Origin: Hydrogenophaga taeniospiralis CCUG 15921
GTDB lineage: Bacteria > Pseudomonadota > Gammaproteobacteria > Burkholderiales > Burkholderiaceae_C
Length of the DNA stretch: 64,000 nt
Direction: 5' to 3'
Assembly: GCF_001592305.1 (NCBI RefSeq)
Contig: NZ_BCWR01000019.1
Location: forward strand, 124,001 to 188,000
Part shown: in pieces, positions 19,538 through 29,462 of the stretch
Layout of the letters: every line of letters starts with the position of its first letter
Position numbering within the stretch: position 1 is the stretch's first letter
The notes under the pieces: model-generated
What the model was told of the DNA's origin: nothing
The model's database searches: none
The model's input: only the letters and a program-made list of their open reading frames with translations
Program-made: the position numbers and the translations under genes

Positions 19538-20269
19538 TCACCGACGAAGTCGACTGAAGGCTTCAAATTCCCATCCCCGCATCGCCAGCACCAGCGTGTA
19601 GCCCCCGCGGTCCTTCTCGGCCAGCTTCTGGTCGGTCTGGTGCTGCTGGGCAAAGTCCTGCGCCACGCGCTGCAGCCGCTCCACGAAGATCGGCGCGAGC
19701 GCGCGGCTGATCGAGCCGTGCACCAGCAGCAGGCCCTCGCCCGAGCCGTCGAAGCCGCCCGCGAAATAGTCGAGCAGGGCGTGGTCGCGGAAGTAGTTCA
19801 TCACCGGGCCGTGCGGCCGCCAGCGAAAGGTCTTGGCGAGCTTGAGGCGGTAGCGGTTGAGCGGGCGCAGCTCGATGATGCCGATGCGGTCGAGCTGCGC
19901 CAGGCAGCTCACGCACTCGGCCTCGCTGAGCCGGTAGGCCGCGGTGATCTGCTCCAGCGTCCACTGGCTGAGCACACAGATCGCGACCAGCAGCAGCTTC
20001 TTGTCGGCCACCACGGCGCGCTCCTGTTCGGCCGTCATCTCGCGCAGCAGCGGCTGGGCGTCGGCCACGCGGCGCGCCAGGTCGGCGAAGTCCAGCTTGA
20101 GCGCGCGGCAGATCTCGTCCACGCGAGAGAGCGACATGTCGCCCTTGGCCAGCATGCGTTTCACGCTCGACTCCGCCATGCCCATGGCCCGCGCCAGATC
20201 GGCGTAGGTCATCTGCGCGGTCTTGAGTTCCTTCTTCAGGGCGGTGACCAGATCCTGGGTGGTGCTCAT
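19538..20269 (-). CDS. XRE-family transcriptional regulator
   Basis: A 243-residue protein with an N-terminal Cro/C1-type helix-turn-helix (about residues 18-75; MTYADLARAMGMAESSVKRML) and a C-terminal domain of about 170 residues typical of a proteobacterial regulator group with an AQPLLREMTAEQERAVV linker. The C-terminal domain's ligand is unknown. The start at 20269 (MSTTQDLV) matches family length; codons upstream run through the palindromic promoter region. It is divergent from the lipid gene cluster, with an exact inverted repeat in between, so it is the prime candidate for controlling itself and possibly that cluster. Confidence 0.8.
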   Translation of the reverse strand: MSTTQDLVTALKKELKTAQMTYADLARAMGMAESSVKRMLAKGDMSLSRVDEICRALKLDFADLARRVADAQPLLREMTAEQERAVVADKKLLLVAICVLSQWTLEQITAAYRLSEAECVSCLAQLDRIGIIELRPLNRYRLKLAKTFRWRPHGPVMNYFRDHALLDYFAGGFDGSGEGLLLVHGSISRALAPIFVERLQRVAQDFAQQHQTDQKLAEKDRGGYTLVLAMRGWEFEAFSRLRR

Positions 20270-20292
20270 GAGGAATGCCTTCGTGCGGATCG

Positions 20293-20340
20293 GGTATCGG
20301 ATATCGATACCTCTGGTTGGAAGTGGGTGCACTGTATCGG
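20293..20340. promoter_or_regulatory. Probable operator of the XRE regulator: GGTATCG palindrome plus extra half-site
   Basis: GGTATCG (20293-20299) and CGATACC (20305-20311) form a perfect 7-bp inverted repeat with a 5-base spacer; a third GTATCGG copy occurs at 20334-20340. They sit 24-71 bases upstream of the regulator start, facing the rightward lipid cluster. Confidence 0.6.
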
Positions 20341-20440
20341 AAGTTGACCCGTCTGGACGCGGGCCACTCAGACACTGCGCCCCGGTCTCACCCCCTGTCC
20401 TGTTTGTTTCACCCGGCCCATGCGCCACCGGAGTGCCCTC

Positions 20441-21325
20441 ATGTCCTTGTCCGTCAGGTCTGCCACCTCCCGCCCCACCACCCCGTGTGTGCTGCGATCC
20501 ATGCCCTTGTCACCCGTCGGGCAGCGGCTGGTGACCCTGGGCACCGCGCTGCTGGTGCTCTGGCTGCTGGCGGTGATCGCCGGGCCGGCCTGGCTGGCGC
20601 ACAGCGGCCTGGCGCTCAATGCCCATGGCCATGCCGCGCTGCATGCCCATGGCCATCCGTTCGTGGACGCCCGAAGCCTCTGGGGCGTGCCCAACTTCAT
20701 GGACGTCTGGACCAACCTGGCGTTGGGGGTCGCGGGTCTGCTGGGCGGGTGGATGCTGCTGCGCGATGGCCCCTGGGCGCCGGGCACCCGGCTGGCCCTG
20801 GCCGTGTTCTTCGGTGGCCTGTTGGCCACGGGTTTCGGCTCGGCCTGGTACCACTGGGCGCCCGATGCCCACGGCCTGGTGCTCGACCGCATGGGCATGG
20901 CGGTCACCTTTGCCGGTGCGCTGGCGCTGGCGGTGGCCGAGCGCGTGGGGCAGAAGCCGGCGGCGTGCGTGATGCGCCTGACGCTGGTGGTGGCGCTGCT
21001 CTCGGCCGTGATGCCGCTCACCCACGGCAATGTGCTGCCTTGGGCCGTGGTGCAGTTCGGCGGCATGGCGCTCATGGTCTGGCTCGCGCTGTACCCGCCC
21101 CGGGCCGGCGCCCTGGGGGTGCGCCTCGGCGTGCTGATCGGCCTGTATGCGCTGGCCAAGCTGCTGGAGCTGGGCGACGAAGCGGTGTTCCACGCCACGG
21201 GCGAGGTGGTGTCGGGCCACAGCCTCAAGCACCTGGTGGCCGGTCTGGCCGCCTGGCCGGTGCTGCGGGCCATGCGGCAGAATGCGCGGGCAACGGGCCG
21301 CGGCGCGGCGCCCTCGGAACGATGA
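20441..21325 (+). CDS. CREST-like (ceramidase/PAQR-type) integral membrane hydrolase
   Basis: A 294-residue polytopic membrane protein. Three motifs match the CREST metal-hydrolase pattern: NFMDVWTNLALG near the first helices, GSAWYHWAPDAHGLVLDRMG (about 132-152; Ser, His, Asp), and GHSLKHLVAG (about 258-267; HxxKH). CREST members include alkaline ceramidases and adiponectin receptors, which hydrolyse lipid amides through a Zn site formed by these residues. The start at 20441 has GGAG 7 bases upstream; an in-frame ATG at 20501 lacks a site. It lies 26 bases before the acyltransferase-MFS gene and is probably first in the lipid operon. Function inferred from motifs. Confidence 0.65.
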   Translation: MSLSVRSATSRPTTPCVLRSMPLSPVGQRLVTLGTALLVLWLLAVIAGPAWLAHSGLALNAHGHAALHAHGHPFVDARSLWGVPNFMDVWTNLALGVAGLLGGWMLLRDGPWAPGTRLALAVFFGGLLATGFGSAWYHWAPDAHGLVLDRMGMAVTFAGALALAVAERVGQKPAACVMRLTLVVALLSAVMPLTHGNVLPWAVVQFGGMALMVWLALYPPRAGALGVRLGVLIGLYALAKLLELGDEAVFHATGEVVSGHSLKHLVAGLAAWPVLRAMRQNARATGRGAAPSER

Positions 21326-21351
21326 TCACAACACCTCTGGAGGAGATCCGC

Positions 21352-23322
21352 ATGAGCAGCCCAGCCACCACGTCCGCCGCGCTTCCCACGGCGAGCAACG
21401 CCCACGCCAGCGCCCACGAGGGCGGCCAGTTCGCCCTGCTCACGCAGCGCCGCTTCGGCCCCTTCTTCTGGGTGCAGTTCTTCGGCGCCGGCAACGACAA
21501 CATCTTCAAGTTCGCCTTCACCGTGCTGGTCACTTACCAGCTGCAGGTGAGCTGGCTGCCGCCGGCCATGGCGGGCCTGGTGATCGGCGCGCTGTTCATC
21601 TTCCCGTACCTGATCTTCTCGGCCACCAGCGGCCAACTGGCCGACAAGTACCCCAAGGAGGTGCTGATCCGCTTCGTGAAGAACCTCGAAATCGCCATCA
21701 TGCTGCTGGCCGGCTGGGGCTTCATGCAGCAGAACGTGCAGGTGCTGCTGGGTAGCGTGTTCCTCATGGGTCTGCACAGCACGCTGTTTGGCCCGGTGAA
21801 ATTCGCCTACCTGCCGCAGCACCTGAGCGAGCGCGAGCTCACCGGCGGCAACGGCATGGTCGAGATGGGCACGTTTGTCGCCATCCTGCTCGGCAACGTG
21901 GCGGGCGGCCTGCTGATCGCCATGCCGCTCGTGGGCCCGACCTACGTGGCCGTCGCCTGCCTGCTGCTCGCCGTGATCGGCCGCGCGCTGGCGCAGGCCG
22001 TGCCCGTGTCGCCCGCCACCGACCCGCAACTGCGGATCAACTGGAACCCCATCACCGAGACCTGGCGGAACCTGAAGCTCGCGCACGGCAACACCGTGGT
22101 CTTCCGCTCGCTGCTGGGCATCAGCTGGATGTGGTTCTTCGGCGCCGTGTTCCTGAGCCAGTTCCCCAGCTTCGCGCGCGACGTGCTGCACGGCAACGAG
22201 CAGGTGGCCTCGCTGCTGCTGGTGGTGTTTTCCATCGGCATCGGCATCGGCGCGCTGCTGTGCGAAATGCTGAGCCGCCGCCACGTGGAGGTCGGCCTCG
22301 TGCCGCTGGGCGCCATCGGCATGAGCGTGTTTTCCATCGACCTGTATTTCGCCTCCCACAGCCTGCCGCCGTCTACCATCGCGCTCACGCTCGGCCAGTT
22401 CATGGCCGAGGCCGCGCATTGGCGCGTGCTGGCCGATCTGGCGCTGCTCTCGCTGTTCGCCGGCATCTACAGCGTGCCCATGTACGCGCTGATCCAGATG
22501 CGCAGCCAACCCACGCACCGCGCCCGCATCATCGCGGCGAACAACATCCTCAACGCGCTGTTCATGATCGGCAGCTCGGTGCTGGCGGGCGCGCTGCTCG
22601 GCGCCGGGGTGAGCGTCCCGCAGCTGTTCCTGCTGGTGGGCCTGGCCAACGCCGTGGTCGCGTTCTACATCTTCATGCTGGTGCCCGAATACCTGCTGCG
22701 CTTCGTGGCCTGGATCGCGTCGCGCTTCGTCTACCGCTTCCGGGTGGCGGGCGACGAACACATCCCCACCCAGGGCGCGGCCGTCATCGTCTGCAACCAC
22801 GTGAGCTTTGTCGACGCCGTGCTGCTCATGGCCGCCAGCCCGCGGCCCATGCGCTTCCTCATGGACCACCGCATCTTCAAAGTGCCGGTGCTGGGCTGGC
22901 TGTTCAAGCTGGCCAAGGCCATTCCGATCGCGCCACAGAAAGAAGACCCGGCCGCCTACGAAGCCGCGTTCGACGCCGCCGCCGCCGTGCTGCGCGAAGG
23001 CGATCTGCTGGCCATCTTCCCCGAGGGCGGCATCACACGCGACGGCACGCTGCAACCTTTCAAGGCCGGCGTCATGAAGATCCTGGAACGCGCCCAGGCC
23101 GACGGCGTGGCGGTGAACGTCATTCCCATGGCGCTGACCCATCTCTGGGGCTCGTTCTTCAGCCGCGTCGAGCTCGCCGGCGGCGAGCCCACCGCAATGG
23201 TCAAGCCCTTCCGGCGCGGCCTGTTCAACCGCGTGGGGCTGAACGTGGGGGAGCCGCTGCGGGCCGAGGCGGTGACGCCGGAGGGGCTGCGTGAGCGGGT
23301 GGCGGGCTTGCTCGAAGCCTGA
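21352..23322 (+). CDS. Fused lysophospholipid MFS transporter and PlsC-type acyltransferase
   Basis: A 656-residue two-domain inner-membrane protein. Residues about 25-440 are an LplT-like MFS module (FFWVQFFGAGNDNIFKFAF at the start, then the loop SGQLADKYPKE), and about 460-655 a 1-acylglycerol-phosphate acyltransferase with the H-x4-D motif in CNHVSFVDAVLL (near residue 482) and FPEGGITRDG (near 556). The arrangement fits flipping of lysophospholipids inward followed by re-acylation, the combined job of LplT and Aas in E. coli, but without the AMP-ligase domain. GGAGGAG precedes the ATG at 21352. It leads the YnbA-like gene by 31 bases. Confidence 0.85.
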   Translation: MSSPATTSAALPTASNAHASAHEGGQFALLTQRRFGPFFWVQFFGAGNDNIFKFAFTVLVTYQLQVSWLPPAMAGLVIGALFIFPYLIFSATSGQLADKYPKEVLIRFVKNLEIAIMLLAGWGFMQQNVQVLLGSVFLMGLHSTLFGPVKFAYLPQHLSERELTGGNGMVEMGTFVAILLGNVAGGLLIAMPLVGPTYVAVACLLLAVIGRALAQAVPVSPATDPQLRINWNPITETWRNLKLAHGNTVVFRSLLGISWMWFFGAVFLSQFPSFARDVLHGNEQVASLLLVVFSIGIGIGALLCEMLSRRHVEVGLVPLGAIGMSVFSIDLYFASHSLPPSTIALTLGQFMAEAAHWRVLADLALLSLFAGIYSVPMYALIQMRSQPTHRARIIAANNILNALFMIGSSVLAGALLGAGVSVPQLFLLVGLANAVVAFYIFMLVPEYLLRFVAWIASRFVYRFRVAGDEHIPTQGAAVIVCNHVSFVDAVLLMAASPRPMRFLMDHRIFKVPVLGWLFKLAKAIPIAPQKEDPAAYEAAFDAAAAVLREGDLLAIFPEGGITRDGTLQPFKAGVMKILERAQADGVAVNVIPMALTHLWGSFFSRVELAGGEPTAMVKPFRRGLFNRVGLNVGEPLRAEAVTPEGLRERVAGLLEA

Positions 23323-23353
23323 TGGCCCGCGTGTTTTTCCAGGGGAGCTTGGT

Positions 23354-23992
23354 GTGTCGATCTATCAGTTGAAACCTGCGTTTCAGAACCTGCTGCGCCC
23401 GGGCGTGGTGCGCCTGCACGCCTGGGGCGTGACGGCCAACCAGGTCACGGTGCTGGCCTGTGTGATCTCGGTCGCGCTCGGGCTGGGCCTGTTCTTCCTG
23501 GCGCCATCGCCGCAGGCCTTTGCGCTCATTCCGCTGTGGATGTTCGTGCGCATGGCGTTCAACGCGGTCGACGGCATGTTGGCGCGCGAACACGGGCAGC
23601 AGACGCCGCTGGGTACCTTTCTCAACGAGCTCACCGACGTGGTGTCCGACGCCGCGCTGTACCTGCCCTTTGCGCTGGTGCTGCCAGGCAGCCCCTTTTG
23701 GCTCGGGCTGGTGATCGTGCTGGCCGGGCTGTCGGAGTTTGCGGGCGCGCTGGGCAGCACCGTGGGAGCCAGCCGCCGCTACGAAGGCCCCATGGGCAAG
23801 AGCGATCGGGCCTTCGTGTTTGGTGCGCTGGGCCTGGCGCTCGCGCTGGAACTGTCCATGCCCGGCTGGACGGCGCTGCTGATGCCTTTGCTGGCCTTCC
23901 TCATTGCGCTCACCACCGTGCGCCGCGTTCGTTCGGCCCTGGCCGAGCGCGCCGTCTCGTCTTCGTCATCCACAACAAAAGGGAGTCCATGA
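23354..23992 (+). CDS. CDP-alcohol phosphatidyltransferase, YnbA-like
   Basis: A 212-residue integral membrane enzyme with about six helices. The CDP-alcohol phosphotransferase motif is present but altered: NAVDGMLAREHGQQTPLG then NELTDVVSD. The first and third acidic positions of the canonical D-x2-D-G-x2-A-R-x8-G-x3-D-x3-D are asparagine here. It would transfer a phosphatidyl group from CDP-DAG to an alcohol, as PgsA and PssA do. E. coli ynbA, whose product is unknown, is the nearest analogue by context. The GTG start at 23354 has AGGGGAG 6 bases upstream. Its stop overlaps the next start (ATGA). Confidence 0.8.
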   Translation: MSIYQLKPAFQNLLRPGVVRLHAWGVTANQVTVLACVISVALGLGLFFLAPSPQAFALIPLWMFVRMAFNAVDGMLAREHGQQTPLGTFLNELTDVVSDAALYLPFALVLPGSPFWLGLVIVLAGLSEFAGALGSTVGASRRYEGPMGKSDRAFVFGALGLALALELSMPGWTALLMPLLAFLIALTTVRRVRSALAERAVSSSSSTTKGSP

Positions 23993-25749
23993 ACACCAGC
24001 CGCACAGCGCAGGAGCGCCAGTTTTCCACCCACGACGGGGTCTCGCTGTTCTACCGGCACTGGCCGGCCACGGCGGCACAGCGGCGGGGCGCGGTGCTGC
24101 TGTTTCACCGCGGGCACGAGCACGGCGCACGCATGGCCCATCTGGTGGACGAACTCAACCTGCCCGAATTCGACTTCTTCGCCTGGGATGCGCGCGGCCA
24201 CGGCCGCTCGCCGGGCCAGCGCGGTCACAGCCCCAGCTTCGCCACCTCGGTGCGCGACGTGCAGACCTTTGTGGACCACATCGCTTCTGAGCACGGCGTG
24301 GCACAGACCGATCAATACGTCATCGCGCAAAGCGTGGGCGCGGTGCTGGTGTCAACTTGGGCACACGATTACGCCCCCACCATCCGCGGCATGACGCTGG
24401 CCTCGCCCGCGTTCAAGGTGAAGCTGTACGTGCCCTTCGCGCGCGCTGGCCTGGCACTGATGCACAAGCTGCGCGGGCTGTTCTTCGTGAACAGCTATGT
24501 GAAGGCCAAGTTCCTCACCCACGATCCCGAGCGCATTGCCAGCTACGAGGCCGACCCGCTGATCTCGCGCCCGATCGCGGTCAACATCCTGCTGGACCTG
24601 TACACCGCAGCCGAGCGCGTGGTGGCGGATGCACAGGCCATCGTGGTGCCCACGCAGTTGCTCATCTCGGGCGCCGACTGGGTGGTGCACCACCCGCCGC
24701 AACACCGGTTCTTCGAACGCCTAGGCAGTGCGGTGAAAGAGAAGCTCGAACTGCCGGGTTTCTTCCACGACACCCTGGGTGAGCGCGACCGCGCCAGCGC
24801 CCTGCTGGCCCTGCGCGGCTTTCTGCTCAAACAGTTCGAGGCCCCCGCCGCCCCGGTCAACCTGCTGCAGGCCGACCAGCGTGGCGCCACGGCGGACGAG
24901 GCGCGCGCGCTCGCCGAGCCGCTCTCGCCGCTGTCCCCGCGCGGTCTGTACTGGGCCGGCACGCGTGCCGGTCTCAAGCTGGGTGGCCTGTTGTCCGACG
25001 GCGTTCGCCTGGGCCATGAAACCGGTTTCGACTCCGGCAGCACGCTGGACTACGTGTACCGCAACCAGGCCAAGGGCGCGCCGCTGGTGGGCGCCCTGAT
25101 CGACCGCGCCTACCTGGACTCCATCGGCTGGCGCGGCATCCGCCAGCGCAAGCTGCACGTCGAAGAACTGCTGCGCGAGGCCATGCAGCGCTTGGCCGAT
25201 GCCGGTCGCGAGGTGCGGCTGATGGACATCGCCGCCGGGCACGGCCGCTACGTGCTCGATGCCGTGGCCAGCAGCCCGGTGCCGGTGGCCTCGGTGCTGC
25301 TGCGCGACTACAGCGACATCAACGTGCGCGACGGCCAGACGCTGATCGCGCAGCGTGGCCTGCAGTCCACCGCCCGGTTTGAGAAGGCCGACGCCTTCGA
25401 CCGCGCCCAGGTGGCCAGTGCCACGCCGCGCCCCACGCTGGCCACGGTCTCGGGCCTGTACGAGCTGTTCCCCGACAACGCCATGGTCGCCCGCTCGTTG
25501 GCCGGGGTGGCCGACGCGGTGGAGCCGGGCGGTTATTTGGTCTACACCGGCCAGCCCTGGCACCCGCAGCTGGAGATGATCGCGCGCGCGCTCACCAGCC
25601 ACCGCCAGGGCCAGGCCTGGGTGATGCGCCGCCGCACGCAGGCCGAGATGGACCAGCTCGTGGCCGCGGCGGGCTTCCGGAAGATCACGCAGCGTATCGA
25701 CGAGCGGGGCATTTTCACGGTGTCGCTGGCGGTGCGCGAGGCGGCATGA
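23989..25749 (+). CDS. Alpha/beta hydrolase fused to a methyltransferase, YnbC-like
   Basis: A 586-residue protein, almost exactly the length of E. coli YnbC. Residues about 10-280 are a monoacylglycerol-lipase-like hydrolase with a likely triad of S115 (AQSVG, where G is usual at the first position), D230 (SGADW) and H260. Residues about 340-585 are a class I methyltransferase-like domain, with the cofactor loop at D413 (DIAAGHGRY). No membrane helix or signal peptide is present, so it probably works at the inner face of the membrane. It could deacylate and methylate a lipid product of the neighbouring enzymes. ATGA overlaps occur at both ends. Confidence 0.8.
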   Translation: MNTSRTAQERQFSTHDGVSLFYRHWPATAAQRRGAVLLFHRGHEHGARMAHLVDELNLPEFDFFAWDARGHGRSPGQRGHSPSFATSVRDVQTFVDHIASEHGVAQTDQYVIAQSVGAVLVSTWAHDYAPTIRGMTLASPAFKVKLYVPFARAGLALMHKLRGLFFVNSYVKAKFLTHDPERIASYEADPLISRPIAVNILLDLYTAAERVVADAQAIVVPTQLLISGADWVVHHPPQHRFFERLGSAVKEKLELPGFFHDTLGERDRASALLALRGFLLKQFEAPAAPVNLLQADQRGATADEARALAEPLSPLSPRGLYWAGTRAGLKLGGLLSDGVRLGHETGFDSGSTLDYVYRNQAKGAPLVGALIDRAYLDSIGWRGIRQRKLHVEELLREAMQRLADAGREVRLMDIAAGHGRYVLDAVASSPVPVASVLLRDYSDINVRDGQTLIAQRGLQSTARFEKADAFDRAQVASATPRPTLATVSGLYELFPDNAMVARSLAGVADAVEPGGYLVYTGQPWHPQLEMIARALTSHRQGQAWVMRRRTQAEMDQLVAAAGFRKITQRIDERGIFTVSLAVREAA

Positions 25750-27122
25750 CTGCGGGCGGTCCTGTGAACCACAGCGCGCCTGCGCCCTGGCCGTGGCGGC
25801 GCTCGCTCGCCTGGCTGGCCCTGCTGGCGCCACTGTTCTACCTGACCTATGGCCTGGCCAACTGGTGGGCCGTGCAGCGCTGGGCCGCGGGGCAGGTGCC
25901 CACGGCGGTGTTTCACTGGGAGCACCACATCCCGTTCTGGGACTGGACGGTGTTCCCCTACTGGTCGATCAATGCCTTCTACGGCCTGTCGCTGTTCCTG
26001 AGCCGCAGCAAGCACCGCATCGACCGCCACGCGGCCCGCCTGCTCACGGCGCAGTTCATCGCCGTGGCCTGCTTTGTGGCGTGGCCGCTGCATTTCAGCT
26101 TCGGGCAGCCCGAGGCCCACGGCGCCGCCGGCTTTCTGTTTGCGGCCCTGCGCGGTTTTGACCAGCCCTTCAACCAGGCCCCTTCGCTGCACATCGCGCT
26201 GGCCGTCATCCTGTGGGACTGGTACCGCCCGCTGATGCGCAGCCCCTGGCAGCGGGTGCTGCTGCACGTCTGGACCTTCGCCATCTGCGCTTCGGTGCTC
26301 ACCACCTACCAGCACCACTTCATCGACATCCCCACCGGCGCATTGCTCGGTTTGCTGTGCGTGTGGCTGTGGCCGCTGGAGCGCGAGGTGTCCTTGCCCT
26401 CTGCGTGGCGGCTGAGCCGCGAGCCGCAGCGGCTGAAGCTGGCCGCGCTGTACTCCGCTGGGGCTGCCGGCTTGCTGGCGCTGGCGCTCTGGTGGGGCGG
26501 CGTGGCGCTCTGGCTGGCCTGGCCGGCCGCGTCGCTGGCCGTGGTGGCCTTGAACTACCTGGGCTTTGGCGCGCGCGGGTTCCGCATGGACCGCTCGGGC
26601 CGCATGCACTGGTCGGCACGCTGGCTGCTGGCGCCGTACCTTTGGGCCGCGGCCTTCAACGCCTGGGCCTGGACGCGCGGGCTGCCGCCCCGCGTCGAGG
26701 TCGTGCCCGGCGTCTGGCTGGGGCGACGCCCGCGCCACGCCGAATGGCTGGCCGCTGGCCAGCCCGCGCTGGTGAGCCTGTGCGCGGAACTGCCCTTGCA
26801 CGCTGCGGCGCAGCCAGTGAGCCGCTGCCTGCCGCTGCTGGACCTGGTGGTGCCCAGCCCGGCCCGCCTGCAGCGCGCGGCGCACCTGGTGCAGGCGCAG
26901 CGCGGCGCCCGCCAGGGCGGGCCGGTGTGGGTGTGCTGTGCGCTGGGTTTTTCGCGCAGCGCCGCGGCGGTGGTGGCCTGGCAGTTGCTGCAGGGCACGT
27001 CCGATCTGGCCCAGGCCGAAGCCCGCACCCGCCAGGCCCGGCCTCAACTGGTGCTGGGGCCGGGTTGGCTGGGGGCCTTGAAGCAACTGGTTTTGCCGGC
27101 CGCTGGTGGAGGCGGCCGGTGA
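25746..27122 (+). CDS. PAP2 phosphatase fused to a dual-specificity phosphatase, YnbD-like
   Basis: A 458-residue membrane protein. The N-terminal half has six or so helices and PAP2-type motifs: PSLH (146-149) and YQHHFIDIPTG (188-198, with H191 and D194). The C-terminal domain (about 310-450) is a dual-specificity phosphatase with a C-x5-R loop, CALGFSRS, near residue 396. The residue before the nucleophile is Cys instead of the usual His. Fusion of two lipid-phosphate phosphatase types suggests sequential removal of phosphates, analogous to PGP phosphatases of the PgpB and PTPMT1 classes. It overlaps both neighbours (ATGA, GTGA). Confidence 0.8.
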   Translation: MTAGGPVNHSAPAPWPWRRSLAWLALLAPLFYLTYGLANWWAVQRWAAGQVPTAVFHWEHHIPFWDWTVFPYWSINAFYGLSLFLSRSKHRIDRHAARLLTAQFIAVACFVAWPLHFSFGQPEAHGAAGFLFAALRGFDQPFNQAPSLHIALAVILWDWYRPLMRSPWQRVLLHVWTFAICASVLTTYQHHFIDIPTGALLGLLCVWLWPLEREVSLPSAWRLSREPQRLKLAALYSAGAAGLLALALWWGGVALWLAWPAASLAVVALNYLGFGARGFRMDRSGRMHWSARWLLAPYLWAAAFNAWAWTRGLPPRVEVVPGVWLGRRPRHAEWLAAGQPALVSLCAELPLHAAAQPVSRCLPLLDLVVPSPARLQRAAHLVQAQRGARQGGPVWVCCALGFSRSAAAVVAWQLLQGTSDLAQAEARTRQARPQLVLGPGWLGALKQLVLPAAGGGGR

Positions 27123-27556
27123 GCGCGTTACCCATCAGCGAACAGGAGCGCGCCGATGCGCTGGCGCTCTCCGCCCTGCTGCGCGCCAGCCTGCGCACCC
27201 TGGGCACCTGGTCGCAGGGCTTGAGCCTGCTGGCCGTCGTGGTGGGCGTGGCCTGGCCGCCGCCGTCCCTTGCGGGGGCCGGTCTGTGGGCGCTGGTGTT
27301 GCTGTGTGGTCTGATGGAGCGGTACCTCGCGTTCCGGCTGGCACTGGACGAGCGCCTGTTTCACCAGCTGGGCCATGGCCACATGCCCAGCCTGCAAGCG
27401 CTGGACACCTCATTGGCCCGGCTCAGGTTGCGCCAAAGCGTCTTGCCCGAGCGCCTGTGGAGCGACCGCCTGCGTGGTACCCGCCACCTTCTCCAGCGGC
27501 ATCTGGCTCTCGTGCTTCTGCAAACCGCCGCAGCGCTGGCTTCCTTGTTTTTTTAG
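27119..27556 (+). CDS. Small inner-membrane protein of the lipid cluster
   Basis: A 145-residue protein of unknown family with two hydrophobic segments (about 30-47, LGTWSQGLSLLAVVVGVA, and about 53-68) and an amphipathic Arg/Leu-rich C-terminus (LARLRLRQSVLPERLW) ending in a further hydrophobic stretch. The start is a GTG whose bases overlap the preceding stop codon (GTGA), so it is almost certainly translated as part of the operon. An in-frame extension upstream runs through the phosphatase gene and is not real. It may be an accessory or scaffold subunit. Confidence 0.65.
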   Translation: MSALPISEQERADALALSALLRASLRTLGTWSQGLSLLAVVVGVAWPPPSLAGAGLWALVLLCGLMERYLAFRLALDERLFHQLGHGHMPSLQALDTSLARLRLRQSVLPERLWSDRLRGTRHLLQRHLALVLLQTAAALASLFF

Positions 27557-27563
27557 GTTTGTT

Positions 27564-28352
27564 GTGAACCCAGACCCCTCTCCTTCCACGCGCCCACAAG
27601 CCCTCCCGCCCATGGAGCCCGAGGGTTCCGCGCCCCGCCGGTTGCTGGCCGCGCTGGCCCGGTTGACCATCGTCACCGGGGCGGGCCTGATCACCGGGTT
27701 GCGCTCGCTGTGGATCCGCACCGGGCCCACGGCCAATCAGACCGTGTACTTCGCCAACCACACCAGCCACGGCGACTTCGTGCTGCTCTGGGCTGCCCTG
27801 CCGCCCGACCTGCGCACGCTCACCCGCCCCGTGGCGGGCGAGGACTACTGGAACACGTCGGCGCTGCGCCGCTTCATCGGCCGCGACGTGTTCAACGCCC
27901 TCATGATCCGGCGCGACGCCAGCGCTGCCGGCCCCAGCAGCGGCGACCCGCTGGCGCAGATGGGCGCCGCGCTCACCGCCGGTGACTCGCTCATCATCTT
28001 TCCCGAAGGCACGCGCAACACCGGCGAAGCGGTGCTGCTGCCGCTCAAGAGCGGCATCTACCACCTCTCCCGCTCGTTCGGCCATGTGCGCTTCGTGCCG
28101 GTGTGGATCGAAAACCTGAAACGTGTGCTGCCCAAAGGCGCTCTGCTGCCCGTGCCGCTGGCCTGCAGCGTGCGCTTTGGCGAGCCGCTGACCCTGATTC
28201 CGCAAGAAGACAAACAGCGGTTCCTGCAGCGCGCGCGCCAGGCCCTGCTGGATCTGCGACCCGAATACGACCGCGAGGCCGACCCCGCGCCCCCGGCGCC
28301 ACCCTCAGAGCCATCGAGCCGCGAAACCCAGACACCCGGGAGCGGCGCATGA
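27564..28352 (+). CDS. 1-acyl-glycerol-3-phosphate acyltransferase, PlsC-type
   Basis: A 262-residue acyltransferase with the H-x4-D motif in ANHTSHGDFVLLW (about 63-75), an RRDA motif (about 115), and FPEGTRNTG (about 146-154). It would acylate lysophosphatidic acid or a related lysolipid at the inner membrane, supplying phosphatidic acid to the CdsA-like enzyme encoded next. I chose the GTG at 27564, seven bases after the previous stop; an ATG at 27612 would remove 16 poorly conserved residues. It overlaps the CdsA-like gene (ATGA). It is the second acyltransferase in the cluster. Confidence 0.8.
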   Translation: MNPDPSPSTRPQALPPMEPEGSAPRRLLAALARLTIVTGAGLITGLRSLWIRTGPTANQTVYFANHTSHGDFVLLWAALPPDLRTLTRPVAGEDYWNTSALRRFIGRDVFNALMIRRDASAAGPSSGDPLAQMGAALTAGDSLIIFPEGTRNTGEAVLLPLKSGIYHLSRSFGHVRFVPVWIENLKRVLPKGALLPVPLACSVRFGEPLTLIPQEDKQRFLQRARQALLDLRPEYDREADPAPPAPPSEPSSRETQTPGSGA

Positions 28353-29311
28353 ACGCAGACACCTTCTTTGCGCTCTTCACGCCCACGGGCTGGCTGTTCG
28401 TCGGCGTCACGGGCGTGCTCGTGCTCGCCTCCAGCATCGCCGCCGTGCTCAAGTGGCGCGTGGCCCACGGCGCGCCGCACGCCGTCATCGACAACCTCAC
28501 CTCGCGCATCAACGCCTGGTGGATCATGGTGGGTGCCATTGGCATCGCCTTTCTGTTCGGCAAGAACGGCGTGGTCGTGCTGTTCTTCCTGATCTCGTTC
28601 CACGCGCTGCGCGAATTCCTGAGCCTGGCCTACACCCGACGCGGCGACCACACCGCCATGGCCGCGGCCTTCTACGTGGCCCTGCCCATGCAGTATTTCC
28701 TGGTGTGGACCGAGTGGTACGGCATGTATTCCATCTTCATCCCGGTCTACGCCTTCCTGCTGCTGCCCATCCTGGCGGCCACGGGCGGCGACACCCAGCG
28801 CTTCCTGGAGCGCGCCTCCAAGGTGCAGTGGGGCCTGATGGTCAGCGTGTTCTGCATCAGCCATGTGCCCGCCTTGCTCACGCTGCCCGTGATCGGTTTT
28901 GAAGGCAAGAACATGCTGCTCATCGCCTTCTTGGTGATCGTGGTGCAGGGCAGCGACGTGCTGCAGTACATCTGGGGCAAGCTGCTGGGCAAACACAAGG
29001 TGGCGCCCGTGCTGTCGCCCTCCAAGACCTGGGAAGGCCTCATCGGCGGCGTGGCCAGCGCCACCCTGCTGGGCGCGGCCCTGCACGGCATCACGCCTTT
29101 TTCACCGCTGCAGGCCGCCGGCATGGCGCTGCTGATCTGCCTCATGGGATTTTTCGGTGGCTTGGTGATGTCCGCCATCAAACGCGACCGCGGCGTGAAA
29201 GACTGGGGCAGCATGATCGAAGGCCACGGCGGCATGCTCGACCGCACCGACTCCGTGATCTTCGCCGCCCCGGTGTTTTTTCATGCGGTGCGGTACTGGT
29301 GGGTGCCTTGA
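28349..29311 (+). CDS. CDP-diacylglycerol synthetase, CdsA/YnbB-like
   Basis: A 320-residue polytopic membrane enzyme. The CTP-transferase signature is complete near the C-terminus (SAIKRDRGVKDWGSMI then EGHGGMLDRTDS, about residues 275-303), and LSPSKTWEGLIGG precedes it. It converts phosphatidic acid and CTP to CDP-DAG, the substrate of the CDP-alcohol transferase in the same operon. A paralogue of housekeeping CdsA is expected elsewhere, usually near frr/dxr, so this copy is probably dedicated to the cluster's product. Last gene of the overlapping run. Confidence 0.85.
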   Translation: MNADTFFALFTPTGWLFVGVTGVLVLASSIAAVLKWRVAHGAPHAVIDNLTSRINAWWIMVGAIGIAFLFGKNGVVVLFFLISFHALREFLSLAYTRRGDHTAMAAAFYVALPMQYFLVWTEWYGMYSIFIPVYAFLLLPILAATGGDTQRFLERASKVQWGLMVSVFCISHVPALLTLPVIGFEGKNMLLIAFLVIVVQGSDVLQYIWGKLLGKHKVAPVLSPSKTWEGLIGGVASATLLGAALHGITPFSPLQAAGMALLICLMGFFGGLVMSAIKRDRGVKDWGSMIEGHGGMLDRTDSVIFAAPVFFHAVRYWWVP

Positions 29312-29394
29312 GGCGCGCCGAAGAGTGGTGTCGGTCGCATAGAAAGTCTTGAAAATCGATACCGACCGGCCGACCTGATCAATCCGGTAAGAAA

Positions 29395-29421
29395 GTGTGG
29401 CTCCAGAATCTGGAGTCACAC
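29395..29421. terminator. Long hairpin between the lipid operon and the YiaA/B-like gene
   Basis: GTGTGGCTCCAG (29395-29406) and CTGGAGTCACAC (29410-29421) pair at 11 of 12 positions around a 3-base loop, 84 bases after the cdsA-like stop and 41 bases before the next start. There is no T tract; it could be a terminator, an operator or a leader structure. Confidence 0.45.
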
Positions 29422-29462
29422 CCACCATCCGCGCCATGTTCAACAACCTTCCGAGGTTTCAC

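What the first reader, a model, noticed from the sequence alone, without database searches (positions are those of the whole stretch)
20441..29311. Eight-gene lipid island resembling an expanded ynbABCD
Every recognisable product acts on lipids: a CREST-type membrane hydrolase, an LplT-like/PlsC fusion, a CDP-alcohol phosphotransferase, a hydrolase/methyltransferase fusion, a PAP2/dual-specificity phosphatase fusion, a second PlsC-type acyltransferase and a CdsA-like enzyme, plus one small membrane protein. Four junctions are start/stop overlaps (ATGA or GTGA) and no gap exceeds 31 bases. Established: E. coli has an unexplained ynbABCD set with the same four core activities. Inference: the set makes its own CDP-DAG, transfers it to a phosphorylated alcohol, removes phosphate, and remodels or methylates the product, giving an uncharacterised phospholipid.
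Basis: partly seen in the sequence, partly recalled or inferred. Interest (0 to 1): 0.78.

Follow-up and report, generated by a model that had tools for sequence, protein, structure and literature searches.

The report
Travelling lipid-making gene set (ynb)
Six neighbouring bacterial genes, relatives of E. coli's unexplained ynbABCD genes, look like a transferable kit for making an unidentified membrane lipid, and one of its enzymes has an unusual, strictly kept change in its metal-binding site.

Summary
The eight ORFs, four start/stop overlaps and gaps of at most 31 bases are confirmed. The eight-gene unit is not: CREST and LplT-PlsC are an older Hydrogenophaga pair, adjacent in 27 of 27 genus genomes with a CREST match, 21 of which lack YnbC. 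The conserved unit is six genes, ynbA-ynbC-ynbD-small-plsC-ynbB, found behind that pair in 6 of 67 genus genomes.

Four genes are homologues of E. coli YnbA-D, both fusions included. In 274 class genomes occurrence is nested: full-length YnbD in 4, all among 5 with YnbC, all among 13 with YnbA, all among 18 with YnbB. A minimal ynbA-ynbB-plsC triad exists, and the set occurs on plasmids.

YnbA has Asn at two of the four metal-binding Asp positions (D1, D3) in 80 of 80 in-frame rows.

Best reading: PlsC and YnbB supply CDP-DAG to an atypical CDP-alcohol phosphotransferase (YnbA); YnbC, then YnbD, tailor the product, which is unknown. Published passages: YnbB makes CDP-DAG; YnbD did not replace PGP or undecaprenyl-PP phosphatases, which argues against an ordinary PG-like product.

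The parts
20441..21325 (+). g1, CREST/ceramidase-like membrane protein; NOT part of the module, but of an older genus-level pair with g2
   Evidence: Ceramidase 22.8 bits, below cut-off; match in 27 of 67 genus genomes, next to LplT-PlsC in 27 of 27 by the printed places
21352..23322 (+). g2, LplT-like transporter fused to a PlsC-type acyltransferase; NOT part of the module
   Evidence: MFS_1 and Acyltransferase; 46 of 67 genus genomes, 40 of them without YnbC; in 3 of 80 relatives' loci
23354..23992 (+). g3, YnbA: CDP-alcohol phosphotransferase-like, Asn at D1 and D3
   Evidence: CDP-OH_P_transf 39 bits; 47% to E. coli YnbA; motif
23989..25749 (+). g4, YnbC: alpha/beta hydrolase (monoacylglycerol lipase-like) fused to a methyltransferase
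   Evidence: Hydrolase_4 and Methyltransf_20; 59% to E. coli YnbC; 6qe2 E 9.2e-25
25746..27122 (+). g5, YnbD: PAP2-type membrane part fused to a dual-specificity phosphatase domain
   Evidence: Pfam below cut-off; profile matches dual-specificity phosphatases; 37% to E. coli YnbD
27119..27556 (+). g6, small protein of 145 aa, probably membrane-bound, unknown function
   Evidence: No Pfam, NCBIfam, PADLOC or PHROGs match; found by blastp in 50 of 80 loci; the ynbD-plsC gap held an ORF of at least 135 codons in each locus printed (homology not shown for all)
27564..28352 (+). g7, PlsC-type acyltransferase
   Evidence: Acyltransferase 54 bits; His66, Asp71 and FPEGTR invariant in 76 rows
28349..29311 (+). 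g8, YnbB: CdsA-like phosphatidate cytidylyltransferase
   Evidence: CTP_transf_1 229 bits; 40% to E. coli YnbB; 4q2g E 1.5e-25; apart from CdsA

Best explanation
Genes g3-g8 are a transferable lipid-biosynthesis module of the YnbABCD kind. PlsC (g7) makes phosphatidate and YnbB (g8) turns it into CDP-DAG, a supply separate from the housekeeping CdsA. YnbA (g3), with the CDP-alcohol phosphotransferase fold but a rebuilt metal site, passes the phosphatidyl group to an unidentified acceptor, probably phosphorylated. YnbC (g4) then methylates and/or acyl-trims the product and YnbD (g5) acts last as a lipid phosphatase; g6 is accessory. Shown here: gene content, linkage, nested occurrence, kept motifs. 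Published: CDP-DAG synthesis by E. coli YnbB. Inferred: the order A, C, D, the acceptor, and the activities of PlsC, YnbA, YnbC and YnbD. The module claim alone I hold at about 0.9; the whole pathway at the figure given.
For: Core genes kept together in 80 relatives' loci: YnbD in 80, YnbA 79, YnbB 76, PlsC 75, the missing ones near contig ends. Occupied and alternative states of one site: in four genus genomes without YnbC the flanks match up to window 23310-23314 and from 29421-29422, with 0.6-2.7 kb of other DNA between; in two with YnbC the six genes fill it. Nested occurrence in 274 class genomes: D 4 within C 5 within A 13 within B 18; in G149 YnbD is about 42 kb from the rest, so co-occurrence is not only linkage. 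Tandem ynbA-ynbB-plsC without YnbC in 7 of 8 YnbA genomes lacking YnbC. Plasmid copies. YnbB separate from CdsA. YnbB makes CDP-DAG in vitro (review PMC7018664, passage). Invariant R141, K149, R152 in YnbA.
Against: No activity of YnbA, YnbC, YnbD or this PlsC is shown. YnbA's two Asn could mean loss of transferase activity. E. coli YnbD did not complement PGP- or C55-PP-phosphatase strains (PMC7413402, passages). E. coli's chromosomal set and L165 have no linked plsC, and L166 has neither linked plsC nor YnbD. Two class genomes (G110, G208) have only an N-terminal YnbA-like fragment and no YnbB hit at 1e-50; if counted, YnbA with YnbB is 15 of 17, not 15 of 15. In 8 of 29 order-sample loci neither YnbA nor PlsC is seen just upstream of YnbC; the stretches are short. 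The P values ignore relatedness. A ynbC disruption's polyphosphate effect was absent in the Keio background (PMC2435150).
Confidence: 0.5

Rival explanations
1. MPIase-like route: YnbB, with or without YnbA, joins a sugar-1-phosphate to the phosphatidyl group of CDP-DAG to give a sugar-PP-DAG; the other genes build, modify or recycle that glycolipid.
For: YnbB overproduction raised MPIase; CdsA/YnbB are tied to GlcNAc-PP-DAG made from GlcNAc-1-phosphate; later enzymes unknown (PMC6362211, PMC10881803, passages). A phosphate acceptor could suit an altered metal site (inference).
Against: ynbB loss did not change MPIase; CdsA does the job. ynbB was not needed for phosphoglyceride-linked ECA (PMC8609368). 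No glycosyltransferase lies in the module.
Confidence: 0.15
2. Ordinary phosphatidylglycerol- or phosphatidylinositol-type synthesis: YnbA makes PGP or PIP and YnbD dephosphorylates it, as a second copy of a known pathway.
For: Nearest solved relatives of YnbA are PIP synthases (6h53, E 4.7e-10); NCBIfam nearest models are AIP and PIP synthases, below cut-off; YnbD's phosphatase part matches PTPMT1 (E 5.8e-9).
Against: Asn at D1 and D3, no basic residue after D4; no inositol-1-phosphate synthase match in this genome; PgsA-type match only E 0.21; published YnbD did not replace PGP phosphatases.
Confidence: 0.15
3. YnbA has lost transferase activity and serves as a CDP-DAG-binding or scaffold subunit of YnbB.
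For: Two of four metal-ligand Asp replaced in 80 of 80 in-frame rows; YnbA found only in genomes with YnbB in 15 of 15 (17 with two fragments, of which these two lack it).
Against: D2, D4, the AR of the motif and the basic residues stay invariant, more than a pure scaffold would need.
Confidence: 0.15
4. The reader's eight genes form one functional island.
For: Same strand, gaps of 26 and 31 bases; YnbC sits behind LplT-PlsC in 6 of 6 genus genomes that have it.
Against: 40 of 46 genus genomes with LplT-PlsC lack YnbC; the pair is in 3 of 80 relatives' loci; other genes stand at the same site elsewhere.
Confidence: 0.05

Closest known systems
Escherichia coli K-12 ynbA-ynbB-ynbC-ynbD (b1408-b1411)
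   Same: Four homologous proteins with the same two fusions.
   Different: Order A-B-C-D instead of A-C-D-small-plsC-B; no PlsC or small gene in the E. coli cluster.
Mycobacterial PIP synthase and the CDP-alcohol phosphotransferase family
   Same: Nearest solved relative of YnbA, alignable over the motif.
   Different: Asn for Asp at D1 and D3, V or I instead of K/R after D4.
CdsA (phosphatidate cytidylyltransferase)
   Same: YnbB matches solved CdsA over most of its length with the C-terminal signature.
   Different: Separate clade; published YnbB did not rescue a cdsA deletion.
MPIase precursor synthesis by CdsA/YnbB
   Same: YnbB is the shared enzyme.
   Different: YnbA, YnbC, YnbD and PlsC have no described part in it in the passages read.
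Acyl-ACP--phospholipid O-acyltransferase, three-part (NF005291)
   Same: g2 matches profile positions 5-595, 525 bits.
   Different: The second half of the 1140-position profile is missing; far below the cut-off of 1349. g2 is outside the module.

Membership tests
YnbABCD-type gene set | Homologues of all four E. coli proteins, linked | tested here: met
   37-59% identity over 88-99% of length; adjacent genes
YnbABCD-type gene set | Same gene order and content as E. coli | tested here: not met
   A-C-D-small-plsC-B against A-B-C-D
CDP-alcohol phosphotransferase | Family profile match | tested here: met
   PF01066 39 bits, cut-off 22
CDP-alcohol phosphotransferase | D1xxD2GxxAR...GxxxD3xxxD4 with four Asp | tested here: not met
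   D1 and D3 are Asn in 80 of 80 in-frame rows; D2, D4 kept; definition from PMC10156783 passage
CDP-alcohol phosphotransferase | Metal-dependent transfer from a CDP-linked donor | not testable with these tools
   needs an assay
PIP synthase | Basic residue directly after D4 | tested here: not met
   V in 80, I in 1 of 81 rows; other rows show V, A or M; feature from PMC6506517 passage
CdsA | Falls in the housekeeping CdsA clade | tested here: not met
   split 100/100 from own and E. coli CdsA; only two CdsA rows, bootstrap not settled
CdsA | Cytidylyltransferase profile and C-terminal signature | tested here: met
   PF01148 229 bits
PGP phosphatase / PAP2 | PAP2 motif residues | tested here: inconclusive
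   P-S-x-H and H-H-x-x-D kept in 82 of 82 rows; first motif variable (R/Q at 121); Pfam below cut-off
PGP phosphatase / PAP2 | Replaces PGP or C55-PP phosphatases | not tested
   not testable here; published as negative for E. coli YnbD
MPIase synthesis | Needed for GlcNAc-PP-DAG or MPIase | not testable with these tools
   published: ynbB loss has no effect
CREST/ceramidase (g1) | Profile match over cut-off | tested here: not met
   22.8 bits, cut-off 32.5

The most novel reading that the evidence does not exclude
YnbA defines a new mechanistic class within the CDP-alcohol phosphotransferase fold: a fixed Asn-for-Asp exchange at D1 and D3, coupled to a dedicated YnbB (and mostly PlsC), lets it pass the phosphatidyl group to a phosphate oxygen (for example of a sugar-1-phosphate), giving a DAG-pyrophosphate-linked lipid that YnbC methylates and YnbD's two phosphatase domains trim: a transferable route to a lipid carrier not described so far in the passages I could search.
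Probability: 0.12. Interest if true: 0.88.

Novelty: new variant of a known kind. Interest (0 to 1): 0.6.

Why it matters
In the passages read, E. coli's YnbA, YnbC and YnbD have no assigned product. The comparison reduces the set to a testable core (YnbA and YnbB, usually with PlsC) to which YnbC and then YnbD are added, brings in a PlsC and a small protein that the E. coli cluster lacks, and points to one exact residue pair in YnbA as the place to look for unusual chemistry. The set occurs in E. coli, Pseudomonas, many environmental Proteobacteria and some plasmids, so it may make a membrane lipid or lipid carrier that was overlooked in a model organism.

Tried and rejected
Considered and set aside: one eight-gene unit; a housekeeping set; phosphatidylinositol synthesis; ordinary PGP/PG synthesis; a known defence system (no PADLOC match for 8 of 8 proteins); a phage set (PHROGs, 4 of the 8 proteins scanned, one weak esterase match).

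Led nowhere: a tree of 37 CDP-alcohol phosphotransferases has end branches up to 10 changes per column; its N/N group needed 3 changes, not 1, so a single origin of the motif is not shown. The methyltransferase domain has no solved relative by sequence (first match E 0.027 is a tektin, taken as chance; best methyltransferase E 0.14). Twenty neighbour proteins of triad-type and variant loci gave no recurring tailoring enzyme. Promoter scan 0 sites; terminator scan 12 sites, expected 5.6, none used.

Rows dropped before counts. YnbA motif: row L020, an out-of-frame ORF. Class YnbA: of 21 genomes listed I count 13 (143 bits or more); 2 distant N/N forms (G207, G015) are counted apart; 2 N-terminal fragments (G110, G208) and 4 weak others (G262, G150, G234, G216) are not counted. 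Class YnbC: 5 of 8 listed, my threshold 300 bits; G010 and G114 are over Pfam's cut-off but weak. Class YnbD: 4 of 13 listed; 8 others match only the PAP2 part, 1 only the phosphatase part.

Papers: ten searches listed no paper on the function of YnbA, YnbC or the whole operon; the library holds open-licence PMC papers only. Sato et al. 2019 on YnbB was seen only as a citation. All papers cited were seen as passages.
Full report
WHAT IS THERE. The window lies on contig 19 of a 5.28-Mb genome; the nearest named relatives of its YnbC are Hydrogenophaga. The eight ORFs are in the stated places, with four ATGA/GTGA overlaps and gaps of 26, 31 and 7 bases. Pfam supports g2, g3, g4, g7 and g8 above cut-off; g1 (Ceramidase) and g5 (PAP2 types, DSPc) fall below cut-off; g6 has no match.

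RELATION TO E. COLI. Against the K-12 region the window's proteins match YnbA at 47%, YnbB 40%, YnbC 59% and YnbD 37% identity over 88-99% of their length. E. coli YnbC has the same hydrolase/methyltransferase fusion and YnbD the same PAP2/dual-specificity phosphatase make-up, its PAP2 part below cut-off too. The kinship is homology. Order: A-B-C-D in E. coli, A-C-D-small-plsC-B here.

In these 80, YnbD was found in 80, YnbA in 79, YnbB in 76 and PlsC in 75; the five loci that lack one or more (L006, L020, L021, L047, L056) lie at contig ends, and L047 shows only a partial ynbB match upstream. CREST and full-length LplT-PlsC were found in 3 of 80, all Hydrogenophaga-like. No other neighbour recurred in more than five genus labels. 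In the genus, 6 of 67 genomes have YnbC, 46 LplT-PlsC, 27 CREST. By the printed places CREST lies beside LplT-PlsC in 27 of 27; 21 of these lack YnbC; and in 6 of 6 genomes with YnbC it lies just behind LplT-PlsC. Three of the six (G280, G290, G294) have contigs as long as those of L007, L006 and L008 and are probably the same genomes. In four genomes without YnbC (L111-L114) the left flank ends at window 23310-23314 and the right flank resumes at 29421-29422, with 0.6-2.7 kb of other DNA between; in two with YnbC (L115, L116) the six genes fill the place, L115 with a further 2.6 kb behind them. The six genes were gained, or lost, as one block; which of the two is not shown.

NESTED OCCURRENCE. 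One sample of 274 class genomes was searched with four queries. YnbB-type at 1e-50: 18 genomes. YnbA-type at 143 bits or more: 13, plus two distant forms of about 60 bits. YnbC over 300 bits: 5. Full-length YnbD over 350 bits: 4. All 4 YnbD genomes have YnbC, all 5 YnbC genomes have YnbA, all 13 (15 with the distant forms) YnbA genomes have YnbB, and 3 have YnbB without YnbA; P values do not allow for relatedness. Two further genomes (G110, G208) have only an N-terminal YnbA-like fragment and no YnbB at that threshold; counting them gives 15 of 17. In G149 YnbD lies about 42 kb from the rest. Of the eight YnbA genomes without YnbC, seven have ynbA-ynbB-plsC in tandem; the eighth (G032) shows only ynbA on a 7-kb contig, its YnbB being on another. 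Variants: L164 A-C-plsC-B; L165 A-B-C-D without linked plsC; L166 C and B with A reversed, no linked plsC. In 330 genomes of the order, 27 have Methyltransf_20 at 1e-30 in 29 places, the window's included. In the short stretches held around these 29, YnbD is seen in 25 (two weakly, at an edge), YnbA in 12, a PlsC just upstream in 9, and neither YnbA nor PlsC upstream in 8. I read the nesting as an order of action: YnbB and YnbA first, then YnbC, then YnbD. That is inference.

MOBILITY. YnbC matches 42 of 72,556 plasmid records, 29 over at least 80% of its length; some E. coli 'plasmids' of 4.8-4.9 Mb must be chromosomes. Three were looked at: a 19-kb Burkholderia ambifaria plasmid with all six genes, plsC and ynbB reversed; a Shinella plasmid with the five enzymes and an unmatched small gene in g6's place; and a conjugative E. 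coli plasmid with ynbA-ynbB-plsC-ynbC and a remnant of ynbD.

THE YnbA MOTIF. The family carries D1xxD2GxxAR...GxxxD3xxxD4, four Asp for two metal ions (PMC10156783, passage). In the M. tuberculosis PIP synthase Mg-1 is held by D1, D2 and D3, Mg-2 by D3 and D4 (D4 the presumed base), and the residue after D4 is always K or R (PMC6506517, passages). In YnbA, D1 and D3 are Asn in 80 of 80 in-frame rows: the window, E. coli and 78 loci, many close kin; the 81st row was an out-of-frame ORF. D2, D4, a further Asp four residues on, R141, K149, S150, D151 and R152 are kept; V or I follows D4. The Asn pair also holds in 11 of 12 class-sample loci (the twelfth incomplete), in 11 of 12 order-sample loci with YnbA, one of them the window's own (the twelfth not read), in three plasmid copies, and in two distant forms that also sit beside plsC and ynbB, but which have R after D4 and lack the Arg of 'AR'. 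Seven other family members, three from the same genome and E. coli YnjF among them, have Asp at both places; one of the seven has His at D4. The tree meant to test a single origin failed through long branches. A wider census was not made.

OTHER PARTS. YnbC's hydrolase domain belongs with monoacylglycerol lipases (6qe2, E 9.2e-25) and matches PldB's profile at 45 bits, cut-off 362. Ser115, Asp230, His260 (putative triad) and the D-x-x-x-G-H-G of the methyltransferase are invariant in 82 rows. The methyltransferase has no solved relative by sequence. YnbD's last part matches dual-specificity phosphatases, PTPMT1 among them. YnbB matches solved CdsA and stands apart from own and E. coli CdsA. 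The genome also holds a second plsC-ynbB pair without ynbA on contig 4.

WHAT IS PUBLISHED (passages only). YnbB is a CdsA paralogue; overproduction raised MPIase but did not rescue a cdsA deletion, and ynbB loss left MPIase unchanged (PMC6362211). YnbB makes CDP-DAG in vitro (review PMC7018664). CdsA/YnbB are tied to GlcNAc-PP-DAG; later enzymes unknown (PMC10881803). YnbD is E. coli's fourth PAP2; it did not replace C55-PP or PGP phosphatases, is dispensable, and had no function ascribed (PMC7413402). A ynbC insertion led to polyphosphate accumulation in HMS174(DE3) but the Keio deletion did not (PMC2435150). ynbB scored in a screen on phosphoglyceride-linked ECA but was not needed for it (PMC8609368). 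ynbA rose threefold in one acid study, which calls it BglJ-RcsB-activated (PMC12871917).

CONCLUSION. The module claim (six genes, homologous to ynbABCD, moving as a unit, with a YnbA/YnbB core) is well supported. The pathway is a proposal; acceptor, product and the roles of YnbC, YnbD and g6 are open. The plain PGP or PIP reading is weakened by YnbA's residues, by the absence of an inositol-1-phosphate synthase match and by the published YnbD test. I file it as a new variant of a known, uncharacterised kind.

Noticed in passing
window 23322-29421 and its counterparts L111 5096-7842, L112 4298-4907, L113 4593-5874, L114 4573-5774, L115 11446-14076: The site behind LplT-PlsC is variable: by eye, LysR- and MFS-like genes (L111), ParE- and antitoxin-like ORFs (L113), a lipoprotein-like ORF (L114), HipA- and HTH-like genes behind the six genes (L115).
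   Followed up: partly
L175 5670-7347 (own genome, contig 4): A second plsC-ynbB pair (286 and 305 bits) without ynbA, beside what looks like ruvC.
   Followed up: partly
L177 2716-3462 and L178 8779-9510: Distant YnbA-like proteins, also Asn at D1 and D3 but with AV for AR, again beside plsC and ynbB.
   Followed up: partly
L182 6844-10943: Conjugative E. coli plasmid with ynbA-ynbB-plsC-ynbC and a short ynbD remnant (85 bits) behind, an insertion-sequence gene further on.
   Followed up: partly
window 21352-23322: LplT-PlsC matches only the first half of the three-part acyl-ACP--phospholipid O-acyltransferase profile (positions 5-595 of 1140).
   Followed up: no
L159 9678-10310: In one triad locus a VTT (DedA-like) domain protein, 25 bits against a cut-off of 33.9, overlaps the start of ynbA.
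   Followed up: no
L173 and L174: Two class genomes (G110, G208) have only an N-terminal YnbA-like stretch of about 52 residues and no YnbB at 1e-50; perhaps decayed copies.
   Followed up: no
window 19538-20428, minus strand: An ORF that looks like an XRE-type regulator lies divergent from g1 and its DNA is aligned in six genus genomes with and without the module.
   Followed up: no
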